A DNA stretch of 64,000 nt. Origin: Streptomonospora mangrovi. GTDB taxonomy: Bacteria > Actinomycetota > Actinomycetes > Streptosporangiales > Streptosporangiaceae. The position numbers and the translations under genes are program-made. Shown one piece after another: positions 53,904 to 64,000 of this stretch (its first letter is position 1; each line of letters begins with the position of its first letter). A model generated the notes under the pieces. That model ran no database searches and had not been told where the DNA came from. It worked only from the letters and a program-made list of their open reading frames with translations. The DNA is taken from NCBI RefSeq assembly GCF_027604915.1, contig NZ_JAJAQC010000018.1, positions 1 to 64,000 on the forward strand, read 5' to 3'.

Positions 53904-54439
53904 GACCCCGCCTGGCCCAGCAGCAACTCCGAGACCTTCCAGGTCTGGCCGTCGCGGCTGACGGTGGCCTCGGCCTGGCGCCGGATGGGCTCCCGCGGGC
54001 TCTCCTCCACGAGTTCGCCGCTTTCGGCGTCCTCCTGCAACCAGTCGGTGGTGTCGACGCAGTCGCGGATGACGACCGCGGCCGCCTCGGCATCGACATT
54101 GTCGGCCTCCGGCGAGTGGACGGGGGCGCCCCGCGCCACCACACCGTCCTGGGCCCGCGCCTTCAGGCTCTCGCTCGCGAAGTCCAGCGCCTGCCCGGTG
54201 GCGTAGGGCTCAAGCGCCGCGTAATCGGGGTCGGTGGTCCGCGACTGCTCGGCGATCACCGCCCACATGCCCTCGTAGACGGCCAGTGCCTCTTCCTCGG
54301 GCGCAGCGGCACTGGCCGAGGGCGACGGCGAGGCGCTCGTCTCAGTAGGAGGGTCGGCAGACGCGCCCGAACACGACACCAACACCGTGGTCAACAGCAC
54401 CGATACGGCCGCCACCGCCGCACCCCGCCCACGAGTCAT
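53897..54439 (-). CDS. Lipoprotein at the head of the Tad operon
   Basis: A 180-residue lipoprotein. The signal peptide is 'RGRGAAVAAVSVLLTTVLVSC' with a lipobox LVSC and a Ser/Pro-rich linker. The mature domain contains 'LAVYEGMWAVIAEQSRTTDPDYAALEPYATGQAL' and ends 'GQTWKVSELLLGQAGSC'. ATG at 54439 gives a typical short signal peptide; ATG at 54466 is an alternative with AAGAGAG upstream. It is the first gene of the operon and probably sits on the outer face of the membrane. The role in pilus biogenesis is unknown. Confidence 0.65.
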   Translation of the reverse strand: MTRGRGAAVAAVSVLLTTVLVSCSGASADPPTETSASPSPSASAAAPEEEALAVYEGMWAVIAEQSRTTDPDYAALEPYATGQALDFASESLKARAQDGVVARGAPVHSPEADNVDAEAAAVVIRDCVDTTDWLQEDAESGELVEESPREPIRRQAEATVSRDGQTWKVSELLLGQAGSC

Positions 54440-54760
54440 CGGCAACCCCGCTGCGCTCTCGTGCATCACTCTCTTCGGATTACCGAAAGTAATACGACGG
54501 TCACACAAATCCAAGGGGTTGGCATCGCCGAATTCGCGCGGGGGTCAAATGCGCCGTGTTGGGAGCATCGCCACTCCGCGGCCAGGCCGTCTCCTGCCCG
54601 CATCACCGGCGAACTTCTCTATCGAGATGCAAATGGACTGTATCCAGGAATACTATGGGTAACAGCACAGAAGATATTGCAATGCACGCATTTACCCGAT
54701 CTTTCCTGTGCCATCCTTAATGCACCGACATATTCCTGGCAGCGCGGTTCGAGCGGCGAC
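54440..54760. other. Tad operon upstream region
   Basis: About 320 bp of moderate, falling GC content. It should hold the promoter for the minus-strand Tad operon; CGATGTTAGC-like or other operators were not recognised. It includes AT-rich patches around 54640-54720. No other gene was seen. Confidence 0.45.
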
Positions 54761-55060
54761 TTAGGCGTCTGGGGCATGGGCGCTCGGTCGTGGTGCCCCC
54801 TCACGGTGAGGACAGCCCCGAAACAGCATGCCCGCCGTTGGCAGCGTCAACGGCCAGCACGCCGCAGCCAGGATCCCAGCGATCCGGGACAGAGGGTCCT
54901 CCGCTTCCAAGCGCCGCCACTGCCTGTGCAGCCGACGCCGGCACCGGCAACAGAGACCGGCGCCGGTGTGAACACGCAACCGGTGCTGAAGAGCGCAGTC
55001 CACACGCACGCCCGCGGCGACGTAGGCGCCCAGCAGCACAGCGAAAACAGCAGAGAGCAT
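54761..55060 (-). CDS. Small two-helix membrane protein
   Basis: A 99-residue protein beginning 'MLSAVFAVLLGAYVAAGVRVD', then a Cys/Arg-rich middle 'GLCCRCRRRLHRQWRRLEAEDP' and a second hydrophobic stretch 'IAGILAAACWPLTLPTAGMLF'. The layout of helix, basic Cys-rich loop and helix is that of a small membrane protein. Neighbouring frames are shadows. ATG at 55060 has only a weak ribosome site, so the start and the gene are tentative. Confidence 0.45.
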   Translation of the reverse strand: MLSAVFAVLLGAYVAAGVRVDCALQHRLRVHTGAGLCCRCRRRLHRQWRRLEAEDPLSRIAGILAAACWPLTLPTAGMLFRGCPHREGAPRPSAHAPDA

Positions 55061-55173
55061 GACAGTCCAGACCCGGTGGTTGGTCAATGTGGCCTGGTGG
55101 AGCCAGAGCCAGGTGGTGCCGCAGCCGGGAAAGGAAAGCGGCACCACCCTGCAATTGCTCCTCGGCGGTGCGG

Positions 55174-55806
55174 TCACATGCCGAGGACCAGGCGTTCCCT
55201 TTGCAGGCGGAGGCGCACCTGCGCCGACATCGCCGTGAACGAGGGCACGGCAGTGGGAGACAATGCGAACCACACCGCCTTTCCCATCGCTCCTCCCCGA
55301 GGCACAACTCCGCAGCACCCCCCGGCCAGGACCGTGACCAGGTGCAGGCCGCGCCCTCCCTCTTCGGGACTGCCCGCTGCCTCGATCGCCGGAAACGCGG
55401 GAAGGACTGGCGCCCGCACACCGCAGTCGTGCACTTCGATGAGGGCGCACCGGGGCAGCGGCGTCGATGCGCGCACGGTGACCGGGCTACGGCCATGCCG
55501 CCAGGCATTGGTCACCAGTTCGCTGACGATCACGTTCGCGTCCGCCCTCTTGACTTGGTCGAACCCGTGCTGCTCGAGCCAGCAGCCGATCAGCGCACGG
55601 GCTTGAGCGGCGCCTTCGACCGGCAACCTCGCCCAGTGCATCAGGACGTCCGTGGTGTCATTCACGATCTCCTCCAGGGATGACCCCGCGCGGCGGTCGA
55701 CCAACCCCGCGGAACGTGAGGTTGCCGTCGCGCCCAGGAGTTCGATGATGCCTCTCAGGAATATTCCTGGCAAGTGCTCGAAACATTCTCGTCCGCTTTC
55801 TCGCAC
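55174..55806 (-). CDS. HATPase-type ATP-binding regulator (anti-sigma-like)
   Basis: A 210-residue protein with a GHKL ATPase domain: N-box 'VIVSELVTNAWRHG', G1 box 'EVHDCGVRAP' and G2 box 'EEGGRGLHLVTVLAGG'. Such RsbW/SpoIIAB-like single domains occur in large numbers in actinomycetes, usually beside DUF5753 and DUF397 genes, as here. It may act as a kinase or anti-sigma factor. A start at 55641 would give a 155-residue protein closer to family length; GTG at 55806 is used only because the frame stays open. Divergent from the DUF5753 gene. Confidence 0.75.
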   Translation of the reverse strand: MRESGRECFEHLPGIFLRGIIELLGATATSRSAGLVDRRAGSSLEEIVNDTTDVLMHWARLPVEGAAQARALIGCWLEQHGFDQVKRADANVIVSELVTNAWRHGRSPVTVRASTPLPRCALIEVHDCGVRAPVLPAFPAIEAAGSPEEGGRGLHLVTVLAGGCCGVVPRGGAMGKAVWFALSPTAVPSFTAMSAQVRLRLQRERLVLGM

Positions 55807-55881
55807 ATGTCAGGATGGTGATCGGGACGTGAGCCGCCCAGCGCGCCACACTGGTGTCCTCCCTGACTAGAAAGGATCGAC

Positions 55882-56733
55882 GTGCAGCAGCGCAGCCCTG
55901 TCGCAGCCCGCCGCAAGCTCGGTGCTCACCTGCGCGAACTCCGCGGCGCCGCCCGCCTTACCGGCACCAAGGTCGCCCAGCGCCTGGGCTGCGCGCCGTC
56001 CACGGTCAGCAAGATCGAGAGCGGCAACCTCGTCCCCGATTCAGCCCTGCTCGACCGCATGCTCGACCTCTACGGGCTGGAGCCGGCCGCCGAGCGCGCG
56101 GCCTTCCACCGACTACTCGACACGGCCTCGGGCGAGGGGTGGTGGGAGCAGTACGAAGACGTCCTGCCGCCGCGCTTCAACACCTACATCGGCCTCGAAC
56201 TCGACGCCTTGTCGGTGACGGCCTATGAGACCACCCTCGTGCACGGCCTGCTGGAGACCCGGGCCTACGCCGGCTCGCTGATGCACGCGGCCGCCTTCGG
56301 CCAGCGCCCCGACGACATCGAGACGCTGGTCGAGGTCCGCATGCGCCGCAAGGAGAACTTCGACCGCGAGCCGCCGCTGCGGCTGTCGGTGGTGATGGAG
56401 GAAGCCGCCATCCGCCGCCCGGTGGGCGGCCCGGCCGTCATGCGCGAGCAACTGGCCTACCTGCTGGAGGCGCAGGAGAAGCCCTACATCAACATCCAGA
56501 TTCTGCCGTTCTCGCTGGGCGCCCATATCGGCCTCACGGGCCCGGTCGCGCTGCTGGAGTTCCCCGACGACCCGCCCGTGGGCCACGCCGAGGGCACAAC
56601 CGGCAACACCTTCCTCACCAAACCCCGCGATACCAGCCGCTGTAGGATCATCCTCGACAAACTGCACGAGCTGGCCCTGTCTCCTGCCGAGACCTCAGCC
56701 ATGATCAGCGCCGCCCTGGAGGAGCTGCCGTGA
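55882..56733 (+). CDS. XRE-type regulator with DUF5753 domain
   Basis: A 283-residue protein with an N-terminal helix-turn-helix 'LGAHLRELRGAARLTGTKVAQRLGCAPSTVSKIESGNLVP' and a C-terminal DUF5753 domain ('YIGLELDALSVTAYETTLVHGLLETRAYAGSLM', 'EVRMRRKENFDREPPLRLSVVMEEAAIRRPVGG', 'YINIQILPFSLGAHIGLTGPVALLEF'). These are the Scr1-like regulators paired with DUF397 proteins; DUF397 can inhibit Scr1-like factors in Streptomyces. GTG start at 55882 with AAAGGA upstream. It overlaps the DUF397 gene by 4 bp. Confidence 0.9.
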   Translation: MQQRSPVAARRKLGAHLRELRGAARLTGTKVAQRLGCAPSTVSKIESGNLVPDSALLDRMLDLYGLEPAAERAAFHRLLDTASGEGWWEQYEDVLPPRFNTYIGLELDALSVTAYETTLVHGLLETRAYAGSLMHAAAFGQRPDDIETLVEVRMRRKENFDREPPLRLSVVMEEAAIRRPVGGPAVMREQLAYLLEAQEKPYINIQILPFSLGAHIGLTGPVALLEFPDDPPVGHAEGTTGNTFLTKPRDTSRCRIILDKLHELALSPAETSAMISAALEELP

Positions 56734-57095
56734 GGCGTTGGCCTTCGGTCGACACCGAGGACGTCCCGTGGGTGAAGTCCTCCTACAGCACCAACCCCAA
56801 CGGGTGCGTGCAGATCAAACGGCTGGGAGATCACGTCCTCGTCGGCGACTCCAAGCACCCCGACGGCCCGACCCTGACTGTCACAGCCGAGGAGTGGGAC
56901 CGCTTCCTCGACGCGTTCATCGCAGAAGGCCCCGAATCCTCCGGTCGGCTCTGGGCCTCCTTCCACGCCGACGGCGGATTCACCCTGAGCACCACCGACC
57001 CCCGCGATCCAAAGCTGGTCTACACGCAACAGGAGCGCGAGGCCTTCGCCAACGGCGCCCGCGCGGGGGAACTACGAAGCCACATCCGGTCGTAG
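56730..57095 (+). CDS. DUF397 family protein
   Basis: A 121-residue protein: the N-terminal ~60 residues are DUF397 ('WVKSSYSTNPNGCVQIKRLGDHVLVGDSKHPDGPTLTVTAEEWDRFLDAF'). The other half is a charged helical tail ending 'QEREAFANGARAGEL'. DUF397 proteins normally pair with the preceding DUF5753 regulator in one operon, as shown by the GTGA overlap at 56730. Partner binding is inferred from the family. Confidence 0.9.
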   Translation: MRRWPSVDTEDVPWVKSSYSTNPNGCVQIKRLGDHVLVGDSKHPDGPTLTVTAEEWDRFLDAFIAEGPESSGRLWASFHADGGFTLSTTDPRDPKLVYTQQEREAFANGARAGELRSHIRS

Positions 57096-57950
57096 GTCCT
57101 CAGTTTCCGCGACACTGCCTCGCAAGGAGAAGCCATCACTGCCCCCGGGGAAGAAGGCCAGTGTCGGCGGCAGAGAGCACACAACGGCTTCGCAGGAGCC
57201 TGCACCTGCTCCTCTTGCACGCGCGTCTTACTCGGTGTCGTAAGCGCGGCTTCGGTGAGCCAGCGCTGCGTTGCCTTCGTCCGTGATGACAGTCACCCGC
57301 CTCCACATGCATGGAGAGCACCCGACCATCGGATTAGAAGTCCGCCATTTTCCTACCGCCAAGTGCTGAATTAGCCCCTGACGTGCCGTTCTATCCGCGA
57401 GAAGGCGCGCGCTAATACCGATCTGTCGCGCAGTGTGCCGCACAGGTGCCAAACCACCGAGCACCCACGGAGCACCATGGCCGCCACAGCGTCCGCCCTA
57501 GATTTCACCAGCCCCCTCGCACAACCACGCAAATATGAACATATGGACGCACGTCCTAGAAGCCACACACGCGCAGAGACAGCCACCGCCATAGGACTCG
57601 TCCGCAGTGCCCTCACGCCGGGAGACCGTGGCCTCGGCGATCAGGCGGTTCCGTACCAGTGCACCCTGCCGTTCTCCCACCGCGCCTTAGCGCTCAGACT
57701 CTTCCAAGTGGGCCTCGACGAGCCGCCGTCACTGCCATTGCCATCAACGGCAGTGACGATGGGCTCACTCCTATCTTGCGTGGAGAGCACCACGAGACCG
57801 GGGCCGCGAAGCCCTGGCTGCCGAATCATTTTCAGGTGCGTGGAGAGCACGCACGACGAAGGGCCCGACACCTCATGCTGACGAGATTTCCGCGGCTGAC
57901 CAGGCGTTTGAGCTTGGAGCGCCTGTCGTGGGAAACTTAAGGCCGGTTCG
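57096..57950. other. Intergenic region holding repeat R1
   Basis: About 855 bp without a convincing gene. It holds the 198-bp repeat R1, and three copies of GC(A/G)TGGAGAGCAC at 57309, 57778 and 57838. A minus-strand frame over 57228-57464 reads 'MWRRVTVITDEGNAALAHR', like the tail of a small winged-helix protein, and may be a remnant. A + strand frame from ATG 57477 to 57881 starts inside R1 but lacks support. Confidence 0.5.
57362..57559 (+). repeat. 198-bp imperfect direct repeat R1
   Basis: Matches R2 at 62197-62394 without gaps over the same length; by eye about three quarters of positions agree, with blocks such as AAACCACCGAGCACC, ACGGAGCACCATG and GAACATATGG identical. It flanks the giant defence gene on its 3' side (minus strand). 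Each copy has CACGGAGCACCATG or its close match, a ribosome-site-like ATG start for a short peptide beginning M-(A/T)-A-T-A-S. Confidence 0.8.
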
Positions 57951-60900
57951 TCAATCCCATCCGTTTTCAATGTCCTCTTGGTGACGTCGACGATCAGCAT
58001 CGAGGGTGCCCTGCACCAGTTCTATGCCCCGCTCGTAATCGGAACGAAGGTCCGAATCTTGGACTTGGATTGCGGCCTGTCGAGCGCGATCAAGAGTATC
58101 ATTCAATTCAGGGGAATCCCCGTCTAAGTCGCTCCAGTGGCCGGGGTGCATCGTTCCCAGGAGATTTTTTCGGACCTTTGCATGACAGCCTGTTATGCGA
58201 GCGCGCTTCATGATCTTCTCAGCAAGAACCCAGTGACGGAGCGGCCACGTATCGACGCTTCTCAGTACCTCGGTCAGTGCCAAGAGGTAGTCCGCGTCGA
58301 GTTCCGCGACGAGTTCGGCCAGGACTGTCCCCTGAGCCTGGGTCAGGCGGTCGTTGATGGCTGTGGCAACCACGCGACCGAGGCGGTCTTGGATGGCGGG
58401 GTCAAGAGAGAGATTCTGGCGGAGCCAGGACACGAGCGCGCTGGGGTGGTCGTCGTAGACGGCGCCGAGACCGGGCAGGTCGACGCGCAGCGCGATATCT
58501 GCGGCGTCTTTCTCAGCGAGATGGTTCAGTACAAGGTCAGGATGGGAGGACGCGATGCCCACGAGCACCTGCTGAACCTCATAGGACTCGTAGTCGGTGC
58601 GTCCGATGAGCCGGAGGACCGCAATGGCCTCCTCCTTGGTAAGTCCGGCTCCGTAGGCTGATCCGTCGAGGCCGCTGGCTCCCTCTAGAGCACAGGTGGC
58701 GGCAACATCAGTGATGCCTTTATCGAGCATGAACGGGACAGCTTCAAGAGGCTTCGCGCGAAGATAGGGGCCGCCTACACCGAGAAACGTATCCGCGACC
58801 TTTGGATCGGGATCACTGGTGCCAGTTACCCAGAGGACATGCAGGTCGTCGATGTTGTCCCAGGCATTGCGGTCAAATGCGTGAGCGATGGCCGTTTTGA
58901 TGGATCCGCGCTCGTTGACGACAGCACCGTGAAGCCACATTACACCCTCGTCTGGGGTGAAATGCAACATAAGTCTGATGAGATGCCACACACTTCGGTC
59001 GAGTGGCCCGGGTTCTCGGCCAGCGATTTCGCGAACGATGTCAGGGAGGATTTCTGGCGCCCGATGTGCGATGCGCCGCCAGACAGACCATAGATTGCAG
59101 GATCGATCGTGGTGGAGGTTGATAACGTCGCGAGCAGTGCGGTCCAGGAGGTCGAGCATCTCGATGACCGTGCCGAAGTGGAGGAGGCGTCGCACGATGT
59201 CATCAACTATGGTTTCTTCGAGTTCGTGCCGGCCTTGACTTTTCTGTATTAACTGTTGAGCGTGTTCGGCCTGGATTTCACTCTTGGTCAGGCCTGCTGT
59301 ACGCTCATTTTCGGTTGCTCGGGAGGCTTCGAGTTCTTCGAGTGTGGGCACGTCGCCCGGATGGACCCTAGTGGATACGAGCCATCTTTCAAAAAGGACG
59401 TCTGCAAGGTCATCTTCGAGGTGACCAACACCGTCGAGTGTGGCCAGAGTCGTGAGGGCGGCATGCATTACGCGCGACGACTTTGCGCGCTCTGCCGGCC
59501 AGGTGAGGATGTGGCGTACCCGGCGGCGGAGAGCGGGGATGGACGTTCGCCGCGCGATCTCGGTCAGCACGGCGATGGTCGCCAGATCATCATCCTCCCA
59601 AGAAAGAATGATGTCGGGATCGGCTCCCTGGCCAAAATGACCGCGCGGTTGACGCAGGGCGTGCTGCAACAGCGCGATGGCCTGAGAGACGCGGTGGTGA
59701 TTCTGGGAGAGGGCCTGGTCGAGAAGGAGTGCCCGGATTTGGTCGCGTACCGCTCGCATCGCTGTTGCGTCGATAGGTACTCCTTGCATCGAGATCGTAT
59801 GCGGAGCTATCTGGACCGTTGCAACTTCCTCCTTCACAAGTAGGGGTTTGAGGGCGAACAGCGGTGTAGCTTCGTTTTCACCCTGGCCAGGTTCGGTGAG
59901 CCATTCGGTGACTCTCGCGACGATGCGTTCCGGGAAGGAGGAATGGGGAAGTTTGATCAGATTTCCAAGATGCTGCTCAATTGCCCACCGTGCGTTCTCT
60001 GTATTTGAATGGGGCGGGTACGGGGTGTGCTGGTGTAGAGCCCATAGCGCGTCCAAGGCGGTCTCGAGGAGCTCGGGTGCATGGACGGCAGCGCTCGCGT
60101 ACAGGCTAGGAAGTTTGCTGCGAACATCGTCTCGGCCCAGAGCTGGCCGACCACTAAGCTCGCGCCACGATCGTTCACCGCTGTCCTGAGGAACCGGCGT
60201 ATTACACCCGTCCTCCTCGTCCAGCCGGATCCGTAGGCCCTCCAGCACGTCGAGCAGCGCTCGCGGCTGAGTCGCCGCGAGTTGCTGGAAGTGTCCCAAC
60301 TCGTCATACAAGTCGTCATAGGACAACGTCTGCAGGCGATGACGGATCATCGCCCAGATCCGGTTCATGACACGAGGGCCGTTGCGCCTGCATAGGCGCC
60401 AGTCGAGTTCACCGAGGGACATCATCAGCCGGTGCTGATATTGCCCGTGACCAAAGGCTTCCCAGAGAGCGGCGACGAACCCGGTATCGAAGTTTCTGCA
60501 AGCTGCTTGGTCTTCAAGAATGCTGTCAGCCACGATGTCCGGCACGACCCGTAACATGTCCCCTTGTTTTATGAGGACACCGTGGTCAGTCAGCGAGGTG
60601 ATGATCTGCATCAGATCGAGGGGTAGCAAGTCGCAGAAATCCGCGATCTGGCACATCAGTTCATGGTCCTCACAGGGCACTGCTCCGAGTGCTGCATAGG
60701 TGGCCAGAACCTTGCGTGTGGCTCTGCCGTCGAACCCATCGACCTCGGGCTCGCGCAAGCCGCGATACCGCGCAAGGACCGTCTCGCGCAGGTTGGCGTC
60801 GACGGCCAGCGCCGCGGTCAGCTCCCCGTGTCGGATTAGATTGGTGGTGATCACCGCGACGTGTGGACTGTGCTCTGCCTGACCAGCCAGGTAGGACCGT

Positions 60901-62000
60901 AGGTCAAAACTCAGTCCCATTCCGTCAGTAAGCTCCTTCACAAGACGCTGAGCCTGCGTTCTCGTGAGCTCACCAACTGGAACATTAGTCTTCTCCGATG
61001 GCCGAAAACCGGCCAGGATCACCTGTTGAGTGACGGCTTCCAGCGCGCTCGGTCGAGTCGCTAGAACGATCTGGATGTCCTCCCGGCTGCGAGCCAACCT
61101 TAACAGCGGCGCGAGCGCATCGGTGTCGACGTGAGCGTCATCGACTACGACTACCGAGGCGCCAATCCAAAGCTCACTCATCGCCTTCTCACTGAACACC
61201 CATCCGGACCTTAGACAGATGACAAGAAGGTGCGGTTGTCGCTCCCGTAGTTCGAGAAGCGATTCTGTCAAGAGGCGGGACTTCCCCCGGCCACCAGGGC
61301 CGGTCACCACCACAACCTGCCGAAAATCGCCCGAGGTACGATCGAGGGCACGCTTCATCCTGTCCATCTCAGCCGTCCGGCCAACGAGGGGAGCGATATC
61401 GTTCATCACGTCCTCGGGGCTCCGCCGTTCGCCTGCGAACGTCTCAATCGACACGAATGAATCGTCCGGACTTTCCAAAAACAGCCGCCTGACCTCCTGC
61501 CCCCAAAACTCGTCAAGAATTTCGCGCTGGATCTGAACCGGCAGCTCACGTAGCATCACGGTCAAATCCCGTCGATCCCACAGTTGCCAACTTGGATGCT
61601 TCTTGATCTCATTGCGTGCGCCGATCTTCGCGACATCGGAATACACGAGATACAGTTCCTTCGCTTCCTCAAACGTCAACTCGTGTACCGCCTGGATCAC
61701 CCGTGCTGGTGACAAGGACTTTAGGTGCTTGCACTGCCAGGCGGCGGGCACACCGTCATTGAAGTGGCCGAACAAGTCGATGCCGCCCTGCGTGTCACCT
61801 GAAACACCCCAACGAACGATGTTCGCGACGTGTCGCTCGTTCATACCGAGAAACGTCTGAGCCTTCAACAGGCGCTCAACGAAGCTTTCAAAACGCATGG
61901 CTGAAAGCCATGGAGTGGGAAGCAGTTGAGGCTCTCTATCGCCGAGGAACCAGTCACGCGCTGATTGCGATTCCGACTTTTTGGCACGCTTCCCAGCCAT
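57951..62000 (-). CDS. Giant Mrr-nuclease/STAND-type P-loop defence protein
   Basis: A 1,349-residue protein. The N-terminal ~170 residues look like an Mrr/PD-(D/E)XK nuclease: 'RFESFVERLLKAQ', 'GGIDLFGHFNDGVPAAWQCKHLKS' with Asp at 75 and Q-x-K at 89-91. A P-loop NTPase follows: 'VVVVTGPGGRGKSRLL' (Walker A about 229-244), 'ASVVVVDDAH' (Walker B about 281-290) and 'IVLATRP' (sensor). About 1,000 residues of helical, TPR-like repeat sequence follow. This nuclease-STAND-repeat order is that of AVAST/Avs-like antiphage proteins. ATG at 62000 is preferred; the frame opens at 62183. Lower GC suggests recent transfer. Activity is inferred. Confidence 0.75.
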   Translation of the reverse strand: MAGKRAKKSESQSARDWFLGDREPQLLPTPWLSAMRFESFVERLLKAQTFLGMNERHVANIVRWGVSGDTQGGIDLFGHFNDGVPAAWQCKHLKSLSPARVIQAVHELTFEEAKELYLVYSDVAKIGARNEIKKHPSWQLWDRRDLTVMLRELPVQIQREILDEFWGQEVRRLFLESPDDSFVSIETFAGERRSPEDVMNDIAPLVGRTAEMDRMKRALDRTSGDFRQVVVVTGPGGRGKSRLLTESLLELRERQPHLLVICLRSGWVFSEKAMSELWIGASVVVVDDAHVDTDALAPLLRLARSREDIQIVLATRPSALEAVTQQVILAGFRPSEKTNVPVGELTRTQAQRLVKELTDGMGLSFDLRSYLAGQAEHSPHVAVITTNLIRHGELTAALAVDANLRETVLARYRGLREPEVDGFDGRATRKVLATYAALGAVPCEDHELMCQIADFCDLLPLDLMQIITSLTDHGVLIKQGDMLRVVPDIVADSILEDQAACRNFDTGFVAALWEAFGHGQYQHRLMMSLGELDWRLCRRNGPRVMNRIWAMIRHRLQTLSYDDLYDELGHFQQLAATQPRALLDVLEGLRIRLDEEDGCNTPVPQDSGERSWRELSGRPALGRDDVRSKLPSLYASAAVHAPELLETALDALWALHQHTPYPPHSNTENARWAIEQHLGNLIKLPHSSFPERIVARVTEWLTEPGQGENEATPLFALKPLLVKEEVATVQIAPHTISMQGVPIDATAMRAVRDQIRALLLDQALSQNHHRVSQAIALLQHALRQPRGHFGQGADPDIILSWEDDDLATIAVLTEIARRTSIPALRRRVRHILTWPAERAKSSRVMHAALTTLATLDGVGHLEDDLADVLFERWLVSTRVHPGDVPTLEELEASRATENERTAGLTKSEIQAEHAQQLIQKSQGRHELEETIVDDIVRRLLHFGTVIEMLDLLDRTARDVINLHHDRSCNLWSVWRRIAHRAPEILPDIVREIAGREPGPLDRSVWHLIRLMLHFTPDEGVMWLHGAVVNERGSIKTAIAHAFDRNAWDNIDDLHVLWVTGTSDPDPKVADTFLGVGGPYLRAKPLEAVPFMLDKGITDVAATCALEGASGLDGSAYGAGLTKEEAIAVLRLIGRTDYESYEVQQVLVGIASSHPDLVLNHLAEKDAADIALRVDLPGLGAVYDDHPSALVSWLRQNLSLDPAIQDRLGRVVATAINDRLTQAQGTVLAELVAELDADYLLALTEVLRSVDTWPLRHWVLAEKIMKRARITGCHAKVRKNLLGTMHPGHWSDLDGDSPELNDTLDRARQAAIQVQDSDLRSDYERGIELVQGTLDADRRRHQEDIENGWD

Positions 62001-62196
62001 TTGATCATCCAATTCCGTGAACTCGTTGAACCGCCCAACCCGCCGACTCGCGACTTGGTGTTTGTCGTGAGCCCTGACGACGTATACGACACATTCTTGC
62101 AGATGTCGCCGACATCCGGCTGGGGAGACATGGGGCCCGCAGGTGGCAGCCCGGCCAACGGGCCTGGTGTTCCAGTCCGTCATTCTCCTTCCGCCC
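62001..62196. other. Upstream region of the giant defence gene
   Basis: The reading frame of the giant gene stays open here (to 62183), where AAGGAGA sits one base before an ATG. The sequence reads Cys/His-rich and is unlike the family N-terminus. It may therefore be leader or an unusual N-terminal extension. Confidence 0.4.
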
Positions 62197-62394
62197 AGTG
62201 CCGAATCATTCTCTGACGTGCCGTTTTACCCGCGAGGGCGCACCCACCAATACCGTTCGACCCCGCCGTGCACCGCGTAGGCCCGAAACCACCGAGCACC
62301 TACGGAGCACCATGACCGCGACGGCGTCCGTCCTAGACTTCGCCAGCATCCTCGAATAGCCAAGTGAATGTGAACATATGGGTACGCCTCGTAG
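62197..62394 (+). repeat. 198-bp imperfect direct repeat R2
   Basis: Partner of R1, in the same orientation and 4,835 bp away. It lies between the giant gene and the companion nuclease-like gene, ending 2 bp before the latter's stop. Here the short peptide after ATG 62311 ends after 15 codons (MTATASVLDFASILE). Confidence 0.8.
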
Positions 62395-62396
62395 GT

Positions 62397-63269
62397 TCAG
62401 TGGGTGCCCTCTGCACCACCACGTACCCGAGCGATCTTGAAGATGGCCACAGGACCCAAGAACGGTGATGGACCACTAGTAAGGGGATAGTCCTGACCCA
62501 TACCGGCGTAGAGGACGAGCCCGTTCCCTGACAGCTCTTTCAAGATTTCAGTGATGCTCCGCTGCGCGTCCCGTACCTCAGAACGAGAGTACTCGATATC
62601 TGACGATATATCGCTCCAGTCACGGAAGGCTTGCACCGCACTATCAATGACATCCTGTTCCTCGTCTGAGCAGTCGTCTGGCTCGATGTGTTCTAACCAC
62701 CCCAGGCAGCCAGAGAGGATAGGCCAAAGATCCCGCCCCGTCTTCACATGGTTGAGCGCCACGACATGAGGCTCTGGGTCGTCCACCGTAATGACATCGA
62801 TAATTCGATCGACCTGATCCCTTTTCAGCTTGCTGATCACATCGGCAAGCGTCTTGATCCCCCACACTTCAATAATGACGCCCCTGTACAAGGGGCGAAG
62901 TTCGTTGTCGATGAATTGGTCAACTTCGCCTGGTGCCGTATCGTTTGTGAGGAAACGCCATACCCTCACGTCACGGTGCTCCTGGAGGCAGCCCTCCAAA
63001 TCTCTGCGGATCTTTGCCTTGGTTCTATCAATCCGCTCGCCGCGCGTGGCGTGTGCCGCGAAGAACACCCGAGCTTTAGGGCAGTATCCGTCATTCTTGG
63101 TGTCCCCCTTCGGACCGGCGGCCCGCACGGGTTCATAGTCACCCGGGTACAACTCCATGCCGAGACGGTCCATGCAATCCTGGAAGGCGTTGCCCTCAAG
63201 CCGAAGCAACTGGCCTTCAACGAGTTTCCGCAGCGAGTTCTGATCCATAGGAGTCATTATTCCGATCAT
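62397..63269 (-). CDS. Companion nuclease-like protein of the defence segment
   Basis: A 290-residue protein. 'LEGNAFQDCMDRLGMELYPG', 'GPKGDTKNDGYCPKARVFFA', 'AHATRGERIDRTKAKIRRD' and 'VRVWRFLTND' match an N-terminal domain seen in bacterial defence-associated proteins of the PD-(D/E)XK-like kind. The Asp of DTKNDGY is kept, but the usual Gln after FF is Ala, so catalysis is doubtful. The C-terminal half, with 'KSLADVISKLKRDQ'-like helices, resembles the non-ATPase part of ABC-3C-type systems. ATG at 63269 (GGGGCGG upstream) is chosen over 63488; 63248 is also possible. It is transcribed in the same direction as the giant gene, across R2. Confidence 0.55.
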   Translation of the reverse strand: MIGIMTPMDQNSLRKLVEGQLLRLEGNAFQDCMDRLGMELYPGDYEPVRAAGPKGDTKNDGYCPKARVFFAAHATRGERIDRTKAKIRRDLEGCLQEHRDVRVWRFLTNDTAPGEVDQFIDNELRPLYRGVIIEVWGIKTLADVISKLKRDQVDRIIDVITVDDPEPHVVALNHVKTGRDLWPILSGCLGWLEHIEPDDCSDEEQDVIDSAVQAFRDWSDISSDIEYSRSEVRDAQRSITEILKELSGNGLVLYAGMGQDYPLTSGPSPFLGPVAIFKIARVRGGAEGTH

Positions 63270-63811
63270 CCGCCCCACATCCGCTGGGGGCGGACTTACA
63301 GTGACGTGCTCGGCTGTGGAGCCGGGCCGGCGAGTGGCGAGGCAGCCGAGGACCCCGCGCAGCGTGTCGGCGTCCTCGGTGTCCTGCGCGGTCTCGGGGG
63401 CGGCGAACTGGTGCAGAAGCGCGTATGAGGCGGGGTGCGGCTGAACTGGGACGGTTGTGGATGCTGGTGCCGTGGCGGCGCCGGTCAATCAGTCACGCCT
63501 CGGTCAGGATGTTGAGGTCGTGGCTGACGCTGTGCGCGCTCGGGGTAACGCGGCGGCGAGGTCTCCGGCGCGCACGCCCTCGGAGGGGCGGCGCCACGTT
63601 CAAGGCGCGCGCCTTTGCGCGTTCCTCCATAACGAAAGCAATGGAAAGTGCCTTACAAAACCGGTCCAGTTATACGAGAATTGGACTCCACAACATTCTA
63701 AGTACGTGCGGATATTTCTCACGGCACATATTGACTGGTCCTGAAAAGGTGGGTGTAGATGTCGGTGCCCTACCGGGCGTGCCCTGCAACCAGCACAGGG
63801 AGGGAATCCGC
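63270..63811. other. Intergenic region before the final HATPase gene
   Basis: About 540 bp. The part to 63488 continues the frame of the nuclease-like gene but is high-GC and unlike it ('ADTLRGVLGCLATRRPGSTAEHVTVSPP'), perhaps a fragment of another gene. The part from about 63630 to 63750 is AT-rich (TTATACGAGAATTGG, ATATTGACTGG) and may be the promoter for the next gene. Confidence 0.45.
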
Positions 63812-64000
63812 ATGCAGCCCCACCGGCCCACACCCGCCAATCCGCCTCCGAACACCCTCTGCCGCATCCTCGCCACGTCCGATCCCTCCCAGGTCGGCGC
63901 CGTGCGCGCGTGGAACGCCGAGGCCACCGTCGAGGAGGCGCGCAGCCACGACATCCAGCTCGTGGCCGGTGAACTCGTCGCCAATGCTCTAACCCACTCG
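63812..64000 (+). CDS. HATPase-type regulator, partial (runs off window edge)
   Basis: The first 63 residues of another GHKL ATPase-like protein. After a proline-rich start, 'LATSDPSQVGAVRAWNAEAT' leads to the N-box 'IQLVAGELVANALTHS', as in the anti-sigma-like gene at 55174. G1 and G2 boxes lie beyond the window. ATG at 63812 has GGGAGGG upstream. Probably a member of the same regulator family. Confidence 0.75.
   Translation, partial: MQPHRPTPANPPPNTLCRILATSDPSQVGAVRAWNAEATVEEARSHDIQLVAGELVANALTHS

What the first reader, a model, noticed from the sequence alone, without database searches (positions are those of the whole stretch)
57951..63269. Candidate antiphage system: giant Mrr-STAND protein plus companion nuclease-like protein
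The ~1,350-residue protein has an Mrr-like nuclease, a P-loop ATPase with an ATRP sensor and a long repeat region, the architecture of AVAST-type sensors of phage proteins. A second gene with a 'GDTKNDGY' nuclease-like domain is on the same strand. Both are less GC-rich than neighbours and sit on a mobile element beside anti-sigma/DUF397 regulators. No exact known system was recognised.
Basis: partly seen in the sequence, partly recalled or inferred. Interest (0 to 1): 0.75.

Follow-up and report, generated by a model that had tools for sequence, protein, structure and literature searches.

The report
Lone Avs4-like phage-sensor nuclease gene
A rare bacterial gene encodes one large protein that looks like an immune sensor, a DNA-cutting domain fused to an ATP-driven switch and a long helical antenna; it probably kills phage-infected cells, and the neighbouring 'companion' gene does not seem to belong to it.

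Summary
The large protein is real; best start 62000 (1,349 aa). It has an Mrr-type nuclease domain (E38, D75, Q89, K91 invariant in 6 of 6 aligned sequences), a STAND ATPase (nSTAND_NTPase5 above cut-off) and a long, mostly helical C-terminus. Foldseek of an AlphaFold2 model (1,192 of 1,349 residues) ranks Avs4 bound to a phage portal first (E 2.3e-11, but TM-score 0.20) and EfAvs5 second; sequence searches show no Avs match. Relatives are rare (4 of 394 class genomes, two of them with Mrr). Some sit beside type I-G cas, Wadjet, SIR2 or TIR genes; three keep the STAND core without Mrr. dN/dS rises from 0.12-0.13 (Mrr, STAND) to 0.32 (C-terminus). The two-gene reading fails: a same-genus genome lacks 54812-62121, a 7.3-kb insertion holding the STAND gene and a HATPase/XRE/DUF397 trio, while the companion lies in the shared flank. 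Companion and trio are beside 0 of 11 loci with STAND relatives. The companion's N-terminal domain matches ABC-3C proteins, but CTD10 is absent and no middle component or ATPase was found beside it. Verdict: divergent, single-gene, Avs4-like sensor; phage protection is untested.

The parts
57951..62000 (-). Mrr-STAND-solenoid protein, 1,349 aa (open frame extends to ATG 62183, 1,410 aa)
   Evidence: start from frame-breaking indels upstream of 62000 and from homologue starts
61554..61904 (-). Mrr-type PD-(D/E)xK nuclease domain (residues 33-149); E38, D75, Q89, K91 invariant in 6 of 6 aligned sequences
   Evidence: AF2 10-residue blocks 62-90 pLDDT here
60927..61391 (-). STAND NTPase core (residues 204-358): Walker A GPGGRGKS, Walker B VVVVDDAH, sensor ATRP
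   Evidence: AF2 confidence low here
57954..60380 (-). C-terminal, mostly helical region (residues 541-1349), inferred sensor; HEAT-like
   Evidence: (modelled to residue 1215); HEAT_2 matches below the Pfam cut-off in relatives L017 and L038; fastest-evolving part
54812..62121 (.). 7.3-kb insertion against the same-genus genome G754; the junction shares GG; no integrase or transposase found
55174..55806 (-). HATPase_c_2 (anti-sigma-like) protein inside the insertion
55882..56733 (+). XRE HTH_31 - DUF5753 regulator inside the insertion
56730..57095 (+). DUF397 protein inside the insertion
62397..63269 (-). the 'companion' (frame open to 63488): ABC-3C-type N-terminal GDxKxDGY domain; in the flank, NOT part of the insertion

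Best explanation
57951-62000 encodes a single-protein, NLR-like antiphage sensor of the antiviral-STAND (Avs) kind. Inferred mechanism: the C-terminal HEAT-like solenoid holds the protein off until it binds a conserved phage protein; the STAND ATPase then exchanges nucleotide and oligomerises; the N-terminal Mrr-type nuclease domains are brought together and cut DNA, stopping phage replication at the cost of the cell. Shown here: domain order, intact catalytic and nucleotide-binding motifs, purifying selection, patchy distribution, defence-gene neighbours in some relatives, loss or replacement of the effector in three relatives, Avs4 as first structural hit. Inferred: ligand type, oligomerisation, DNA cleavage, cell death. 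The companion and the regulator trio are not required parts.
For: Foldseek first hit 8dgf_B (Avs4 bound to phage portal, E 2.3e-11, prob 1.00), second 9jap_A (EfAvs5, E 3.2e-7); the other 48 of the 50 rows listed (1,187 matches at E up to 10) are mostly HEAT/importin-type solenoids by name (that these are HEAT folds is recalled). Pfam nSTAND_NTPase5 and Mrr_cat. Catalytic E, D, QxK and Walker motifs invariant in 6 of 6. STAND core kept (30-36% identity) but Mrr motifs absent in L007, L016 and L017, whose N-termini are unassigned, EAD1 and NNH1. Neighbours: Cas56g/Cas3g/Cas8g/Cas2g in L004; JetA/JetB/JetC, the first ORF 51 bp after the gene, in L007; SIR2_2 protein on the other strand, ORFs overlapping as called, in L006; TIR_2 protein divergent in L016. 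Mrr + nSTAND5 order on alphaproteobacterial plasmids L038, L039. dN/dS 0.12 Mrr, 0.13 STAND, 0.32 C-terminus. Rare: 4 of 394 class genomes, 2 of 396 phylum genomes, both including the own genome and G081. Empty site in G754.
Against: No sequence match to any Avs or other defence model (best PADLOC E 0.011, to mad8, in 3 of 9 members) or to Avs chains by profile up to E 10. The whole-chain TM-score to Avs4 is only 0.20 over a 1,524-column alignment (rmsd 23), so arrangement and sensor fold are not shown to match. The STAND core of the model has low pLDDT (blocks 48-68), pTM 0.50. nSTAND_NTPase5 is below its cut-off in 8 of the 9 relatives scanned (only L038, 34.1 bits, passes), and unrelated P-loop proteins also give weak matches to it (21-25 bits). 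Neighbour genes were scanned selectively and no background rate was measured. No phage data exist. This copy's own Mrr_cat score is below the Pfam cut-off.
Confidence: 0.8

Rival explanations
1. A two-gene system: the STAND protein senses and the GDTKNDGY protein is a second effector or regulator, co-transcribed from upstream.
For: Same strand, 213 bp apart to the ATG at 62183, similar low G+C. A Shine-Dalgarno-like AAGGAG precedes ATG 62183, which lies in the companion-side flank, so transcription and translation could run from there into the STAND gene.
Against: The companion lies outside the insertion and is 99.7% identical in G754, where the STAND gene is absent from this site. It is beside 0 of 11 loci with STAND relatives, and the STAND gene is beside 0 of 7 loci with companion relatives apart from 21 flank codons in G754.
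Confidence: 0.06
2. A STAND transcription factor or regulatory ATPase of the MalT/AfsR kind, with no role in defence, tied to the XRE/DUF397 regulators next to it.
For: STAND regulators are common in actinobacteria (recalled). [quoted passage not shown] coelicolor (PMC10364602, passages including the abstract). The Rhizobium relative carries an N-terminal HTH.
Against: An intact Mrr catalytic set and no DNA-binding domain found; the trio is beside 0 of 11 relatives; nearest solved folds are Avs4 and Avs5; some relatives sit beside CRISPR and Wadjet genes.
Confidence: 0.07
3. A type IV, modification-dependent restriction enzyme: Mrr-type nuclease plus NTPase that recognises modified DNA directly rather than a phage protein.
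For: Mrr-family catalytic domain; an NTPase in the same chain.
Against: The NTPase is STAND-type and the long C-terminal part is HEAT-like, resembling protein-binding importins and Avs4. Relatives have EAD1 or NNH1 in place of the nuclease while keeping ATPase and C-terminus, which does not fit a DNA-recognising enzyme.
Confidence: 0.07

Closest known systems
Avs4 (AVAST type 4; PDB 8dgf)
   Same: First Foldseek hit. Single large protein with N-terminal nuclease, central STAND ATPase, long C-terminal helical sensor. Avs1-4 nuclease effectors kill after recognising terminase, portal or another phage protein (PMC12931631, passages). That Avs4's nuclease is of the Mrr kind is recalled.
   Different: 11% identity and TM-score 0.20; no hit with PADLOC, NCBIfam or a profile against PDB sequences. 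C-terminus resembles HEAT/importin structures; Avs4's sensor is of the TPR kind (recalled). Ligand unknown.
Avs5 (SIR2-STAND; PDB 9jap)
   Same: Second Foldseek hit: effector-STAND-helical repeat order.
   Different: Effector is a SIR2 NADase in Avs5 (PMC12931631, passages), Mrr-type nuclease here.
STAND conflict systems with exchangeable N-terminal effectors (Kaur et al. 2020, 2021)
   Same: STAND proteins with variable effectors, among them REase and EADs, are described there (PMC7159879, PMC8195603, passages).
   Different: In the passages shown (12 of 19 places, and 9 of 9 places) nSTAND_NTPase5 and this family are not named; the rest of both papers was not read.
ABC-3C systems (CTD10 type), for the companion
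   Same: N-terminal GDxKxDGY domain aligns with the first gene of ABC-3C + MC6 operons on plasmids, 21-26% over the alignment.
   Different: The companion lacks CTD10; no middle component or ABC ATPase was found among the genes scanned beside it; the FQxYAP stretch is changed.

Membership tests
Avs (AVAST) types 1-5 | sequence match to curated Avs/defence models | tested here: not met
   PADLOC and NCBIfam scans of the window protein (E up to 1) and of 9 family members (E up to 0.1): no Avs model listed. That these libraries hold Avs models is recalled; no positive control was run
Avs (AVAST) types 1-5 | N-terminal effector + central STAND NTPase + C-terminal repeat sensor | tested here: met
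   (the sensor role is inferred)
Avs (AVAST) types 1-5 | fold similarity to solved Avs structures | tested here: inconclusive
   8dgf_B and 9jap_A are first and second (E 2.3e-11, 3.2e-7) but TM-scores are 0.20 and 0.25 over the query length
Avs (AVAST) types 1-5 | direct recognition of a phage protein (terminase, portal or other) triggering the effector | not testable with these tools
   needs phage challenge and co-expression
STAND NTPases | P-loop NTPase with STAND-type Walker A/B and sensor; curated STAND model above cut-off | tested here: met
   PF25199 38.3 bits against cut-off 34; Walker A lysine, second Walker B aspartate and sensor arginine in 9 of 9 members. 8 of 9 relatives scanned score below the cut-off
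Mrr-type PD-(D/E)xK nucleases | E / D / QxK catalytic residues | tested here: met
   invariant in 6 of 6; Pfam score of this copy below cut-off, L006, L004 and L039 above
ABC-3C system (companion) | CTD10 or other ABC-3C C-terminal domain | tested here: not met
   no Pfam match for the companion at E 0.01; at E up to 1 only a sub-threshold match to an unrelated family
ABC-3C system (companion) | adjacent middle component and ABC ATPase genes | tested here: inconclusive
   none among the genes scanned on the insertion side or among five ORFs of L015, which reach about 12.5 kb upstream of the companion; other ORFs there were not scanned

The most novel reading that the evidence does not exclude
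This is an undescribed, mainly actinobacterial branch of antiviral STAND receptors: one conserved nSTAND5-HEAT sensor core on which effectors are exchanged. They are fused (Mrr) or recruited through N-terminal adaptors (EAD1, NNH1), and in one relative perhaps through a short sequence shared with a neighbouring TIR protein. The HEAT-like sensor would recognise a phage protein class not yet linked to Avs proteins.
Probability: 0.35. Interest if true: 0.6.

Novelty: new member of a known kind. Interest (0 to 1): 0.42.

Why it matters
It adds a candidate phage sensor that the defence-gene libraries used here do not flag, in a relative of Nocardiopsis. The family supplies a natural comparison: the same sensor core with and without the nuclease. 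The empty site gives a natural with/without pair of genomes, and it shows that proximity and low G+C alone wrongly suggested a two-gene system.

Tried and rejected
Two-gene system: rejected. Companion as an active nuclease: not shown; its GDxKxDGY is there but the FQxYAP stretch is not, and a profile search of PDB sequences gave nothing convincing (best E 0.071). Deletion in G754 instead of insertion here: not excluded, but DNA homology to L002 stops at 62126, within 5 bp of the junction, which favours insertion. Against that, three sister genomes (G250, G752, G753) carry a HATPase/XRE/DUF397 trio near the same place, at about 33-34% identity for HATPase and XRE. The N-terminal 61 residues (62001-62183) as coding: rejected as ancestral; the first 20-21 codons are flank DNA. 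Direct repeat 57339-57559 / 62174-62394 as an RNA family: no Rfam match at E 0.5. Phage or virus-borne relatives: none in 'phages' at E 1e-5; no pattern match in viral contigs for the STAND protein; for the companion four candidates, none confirmed. Literature: nine searches listed no paper that I recognised as describing this protein family; only passages of PMC7159879, PMC8195603, PMC12931631, PMC13236601, PMC10364602 and PMC10286901 were seen, the rest were search listings. The planned fold of the companion was not run.
Full report
What is there. The minus strand holds an open frame from ATG 62183 to the stop at 57951 (1,410 codons). Pfam gives Mrr_cat at residues 94-210 (18.6 bits, below the cut-off of 21), nSTAND_NTPase5 (38.3 bits, above 34) and AAA_16 (35.3, above 32.6). 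The nearest relative, L002 (Nocardiopsis sinuspersici, 77% protein identity), aligns at DNA level from 57943 to 62126. Upstream of the ATG at 62000 that alignment has 1- and 2-nt indels, so the upstream 61 residues are not conserved coding sequence. I take 62000 as the ancestral start (1,349 aa). An AAGGAG-like site does precede ATG 62183, so the longer form could also be made.

Domains. In an alignment of the window protein with five homologues (A1), E38, D75, Q89 and K91 of the Mrr-type site, the Walker A core, both Walker B aspartates and the RP of the ATRP motif are invariant in 6 of 6. Mrr_cat passes Pfam's cut-off in L006 (27.7 bits), L004 (23.2) and the Xanthobacter plasmid relative L039 (27.4), but not in the window (18.6), L003 (18.2) or the Rhizobium plasmid relative L038 (19.2); L002 and L005 were not scanned. 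nSTAND_NTPase5 passes only in the window and L038; the other eight relatives scanned are below its cut-off, and two unrelated P-loop proteins also match it weakly. AlphaFold2 on 1,192 of the 1,349 residues (24-1215) with the six-row alignment gave mean pLDDT 74 and pTM 0.50. Ten-residue blocks are at 62-90 in the Mrr region, 48-68 in the STAND core and mostly above 75 in the almost wholly helical C-terminal half. Foldseek against the PDB ranks Avs4 bound to a phage portal first (E 2.3e-11), EfAvs5 second (3.2e-7), then mostly HEAT-type solenoids such as importins among the 50 rows listed. TM-scores are low (0.20 and 0.25), which flexible long chains could explain but which is no proof of the same arrangement. 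Profile searches of PDB sequences found no Avs chain up to E 10.

Selection and modularity. Against L002, dN/dS (Nei-Gojobori, own script) is 0.22 overall: 0.12 in Mrr, 0.13 in STAND, rising to 0.32 in residues 1101-1349. Identity falls in the same direction, as expected if the C-terminus is the sensor. Three further relatives, L007, L016 and L017, keep the STAND core (30-36% identity) but not the Mrr motifs. Their N-termini are without a Pfam match (L007), EAD1 (L016) and NNH1 (L017). A fourth, partial relative (L060, found by profile) also has no Mrr match. In L016 the STAND protein and a divergent TIR_2 protein share a short Gly/Asn-rich stretch (BLASTP of these two proteins only, without low-complexity filter: E 1.2e-6, 33% over 81 residues), which may be a homotypic coupling motif. 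STAND proteins with exchanged effectors are described for bacterial conflict systems (passages of PMC7159879 and PMC8195603).

Distribution and neighbours. A relative occurs in 4 of 394 class genomes: the window's own, G384, G056 and G081; only the first two matches include the Mrr region. G384 appears to be L002's genome, since its contig has the same length. In a phylum sample it was 2 of 396, the own genome and G081. In the genus it was 2 of 6, the second (G754) with fragments only. A profile search of the class sample found 6 of 394, two of them partial matches. No relative was found in 50,697 phage records. Three plasmid records of 72,556 had a partial match. I scanned chosen neighbours, not all. 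Type I-G cas genes lie about 2 kb before the gene in L004, with a WD40-repeat protein that has a sub-threshold nSTAND1 match on the other side. Wadjet jetA, jetB and jetC follow in L007, the first ORF 51 bp after the gene. A SIR2_2 protein lies on the opposite strand at the start in L006 (ORFs overlap as called). The TIR_2 protein is in L016. That is 4 of the 9 actinobacterial loci held with wide flanks (L002-L007, L016, L017, L060). For L002, L003, L005 and L017 the one to four neighbours scanned gave no known defence system; L060 has a neighbouring AAA/NACHT-like protein below cut-off. Genes of mobile DNA were seen near L003 (TrwC relaxase), L016 (serine recombinase), L017 (Mu-type transposase) and L006 (group II intron). 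No background rate was measured.

The companion. 62397-63269 (open to 63488) has no Pfam match at E 0.01. By tblastn its N-terminal half matches ABC-3C genes on five plasmid records; in the four I opened that gene is followed by middle component 6 and a further ABC-3C protein, which in Yoonia carries DUF2326 and a sub-threshold AAA_23 match. The shared motif is GDxKxDGY. The companion lacks the CTD10 domain found in the Yoonia protein and the FQxYAP stretch. No middle component or ATPase was found among the ORFs scanned beside it. In the class sample 3 of 394 genomes matched it, the own genome and two distant N-terminal matches (26-28%).

The insertion. The same-genus genome G754 matches the window at 54000-54811 (98.4%) and again at 62122-64000 (99.6%), with nothing between. 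The junction shares GG. So 54812-62121 is an insertion here or a deletion there. DNA homology to L002 stops at 62126, within 5 bp of the right junction, which favours insertion. Against this, G250, G752 and G753 carry a HATPase/XRE/DUF397 trio near the same site (33-34% protein identity for HATPase and XRE, 39-44% for DUF397; neighbouring Tad-like genes 51-59% in G250 and G752). The companion lies in the flank and is 99.7% identical in G754. G754 also holds a decayed piece of the STAND gene's 3' end elsewhere (94-98% DNA identity), so the gene has come and gone in this group. By tblastn at E 1e-3 the companion is beside 0 of 11 loci of STAND relatives, and the regulator trio beside 0 of 11.

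Known kinds. Avs1-4 use nuclease effectors and kill after recognising terminase, portal or another phage protein; Avs5 uses SIR2 (PMC12931631, passages). The present protein shares that architecture and its nearest solved folds are Avs4 and Avs5, but it fails every sequence test of membership tried; no Avs protein was run as a positive control. I therefore say that it works like an Avs4-type sensor and do not file it as Avs4. XRE/DUF397 pairs behaved as pleiotropic regulators and not as toxin-antitoxin systems in S. coelicolor (PMC10364602, passages including the abstract), so the trio here is more likely a regulatory passenger than a defence part.

Verdict. A divergent, single-gene, Avs4-like antiphage sensor is the best explanation (0.8). 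Shown: domains, motifs, selection, empty site, lack of conserved partners in the loci examined, fold ranking. Not shown: phage protection, ligand, oligomer, DNA cleavage.

Noticed in passing
57339-57559 and 62174-62394: A 221-bp direct repeat (76-77% identical) lies after the STAND gene and after the companion; on the minus strand both copies carry a Shine-Dalgarno-like site and ATG followed by short frames. No Rfam match; origin unexplained.
   Followed up: partly
L016 8918-12730 and 12938-14104: A STAND protein with EAD1 and a divergent TIR protein share a short Gly/Asn-rich stretch (E 1.2e-6 in a two-sequence comparison), possibly an amyloid-like homotypic signalling motif.
   Followed up: partly
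L003 3958-6679 and L006 518-3208: Both loci seem to carry a similar module: XRE protein, a small protein that looks acyl-carrier-like by eye (no Pfam match in L003), a Peptidase_M78 protein in L003, and a third protein that in L003 is MazG/MazG_C. The L006 copy was judged by eye from its ORFs.
   Followed up: no
L023 9694-10178 (G754): Decayed piece of the STAND gene's 3' end and downstream DNA at another place of the same-genus genome (94-98% DNA identity), showing gain and loss.
   Followed up: partly
L015 6405-10960 (about 69.4-74.0 kb on the window's contig): Lantibiotic dehydratase, a short Cys-rich peptide and a PCMT-type methyltransferase: a probable class I lanthipeptide cluster (the cluster type is recalled).
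   Followed up: no
L050 3623-7084 (G754): G754 has about 3.5 kb that the window's genome lacks, about 2.8 kb to the right of the window's insertion, so the spot beside the Tad-like gene cluster is variable in this genus.
   Followed up: no
L038 7740-11768: Rhizobium conjugative-plasmid relative with HTH, Mrr_cat and HEAT_2 (the last two below cut-off) and nSTAND5, next to AAA ATPase, helicase, HEPN-associated and HNH genes.
   Followed up: partly
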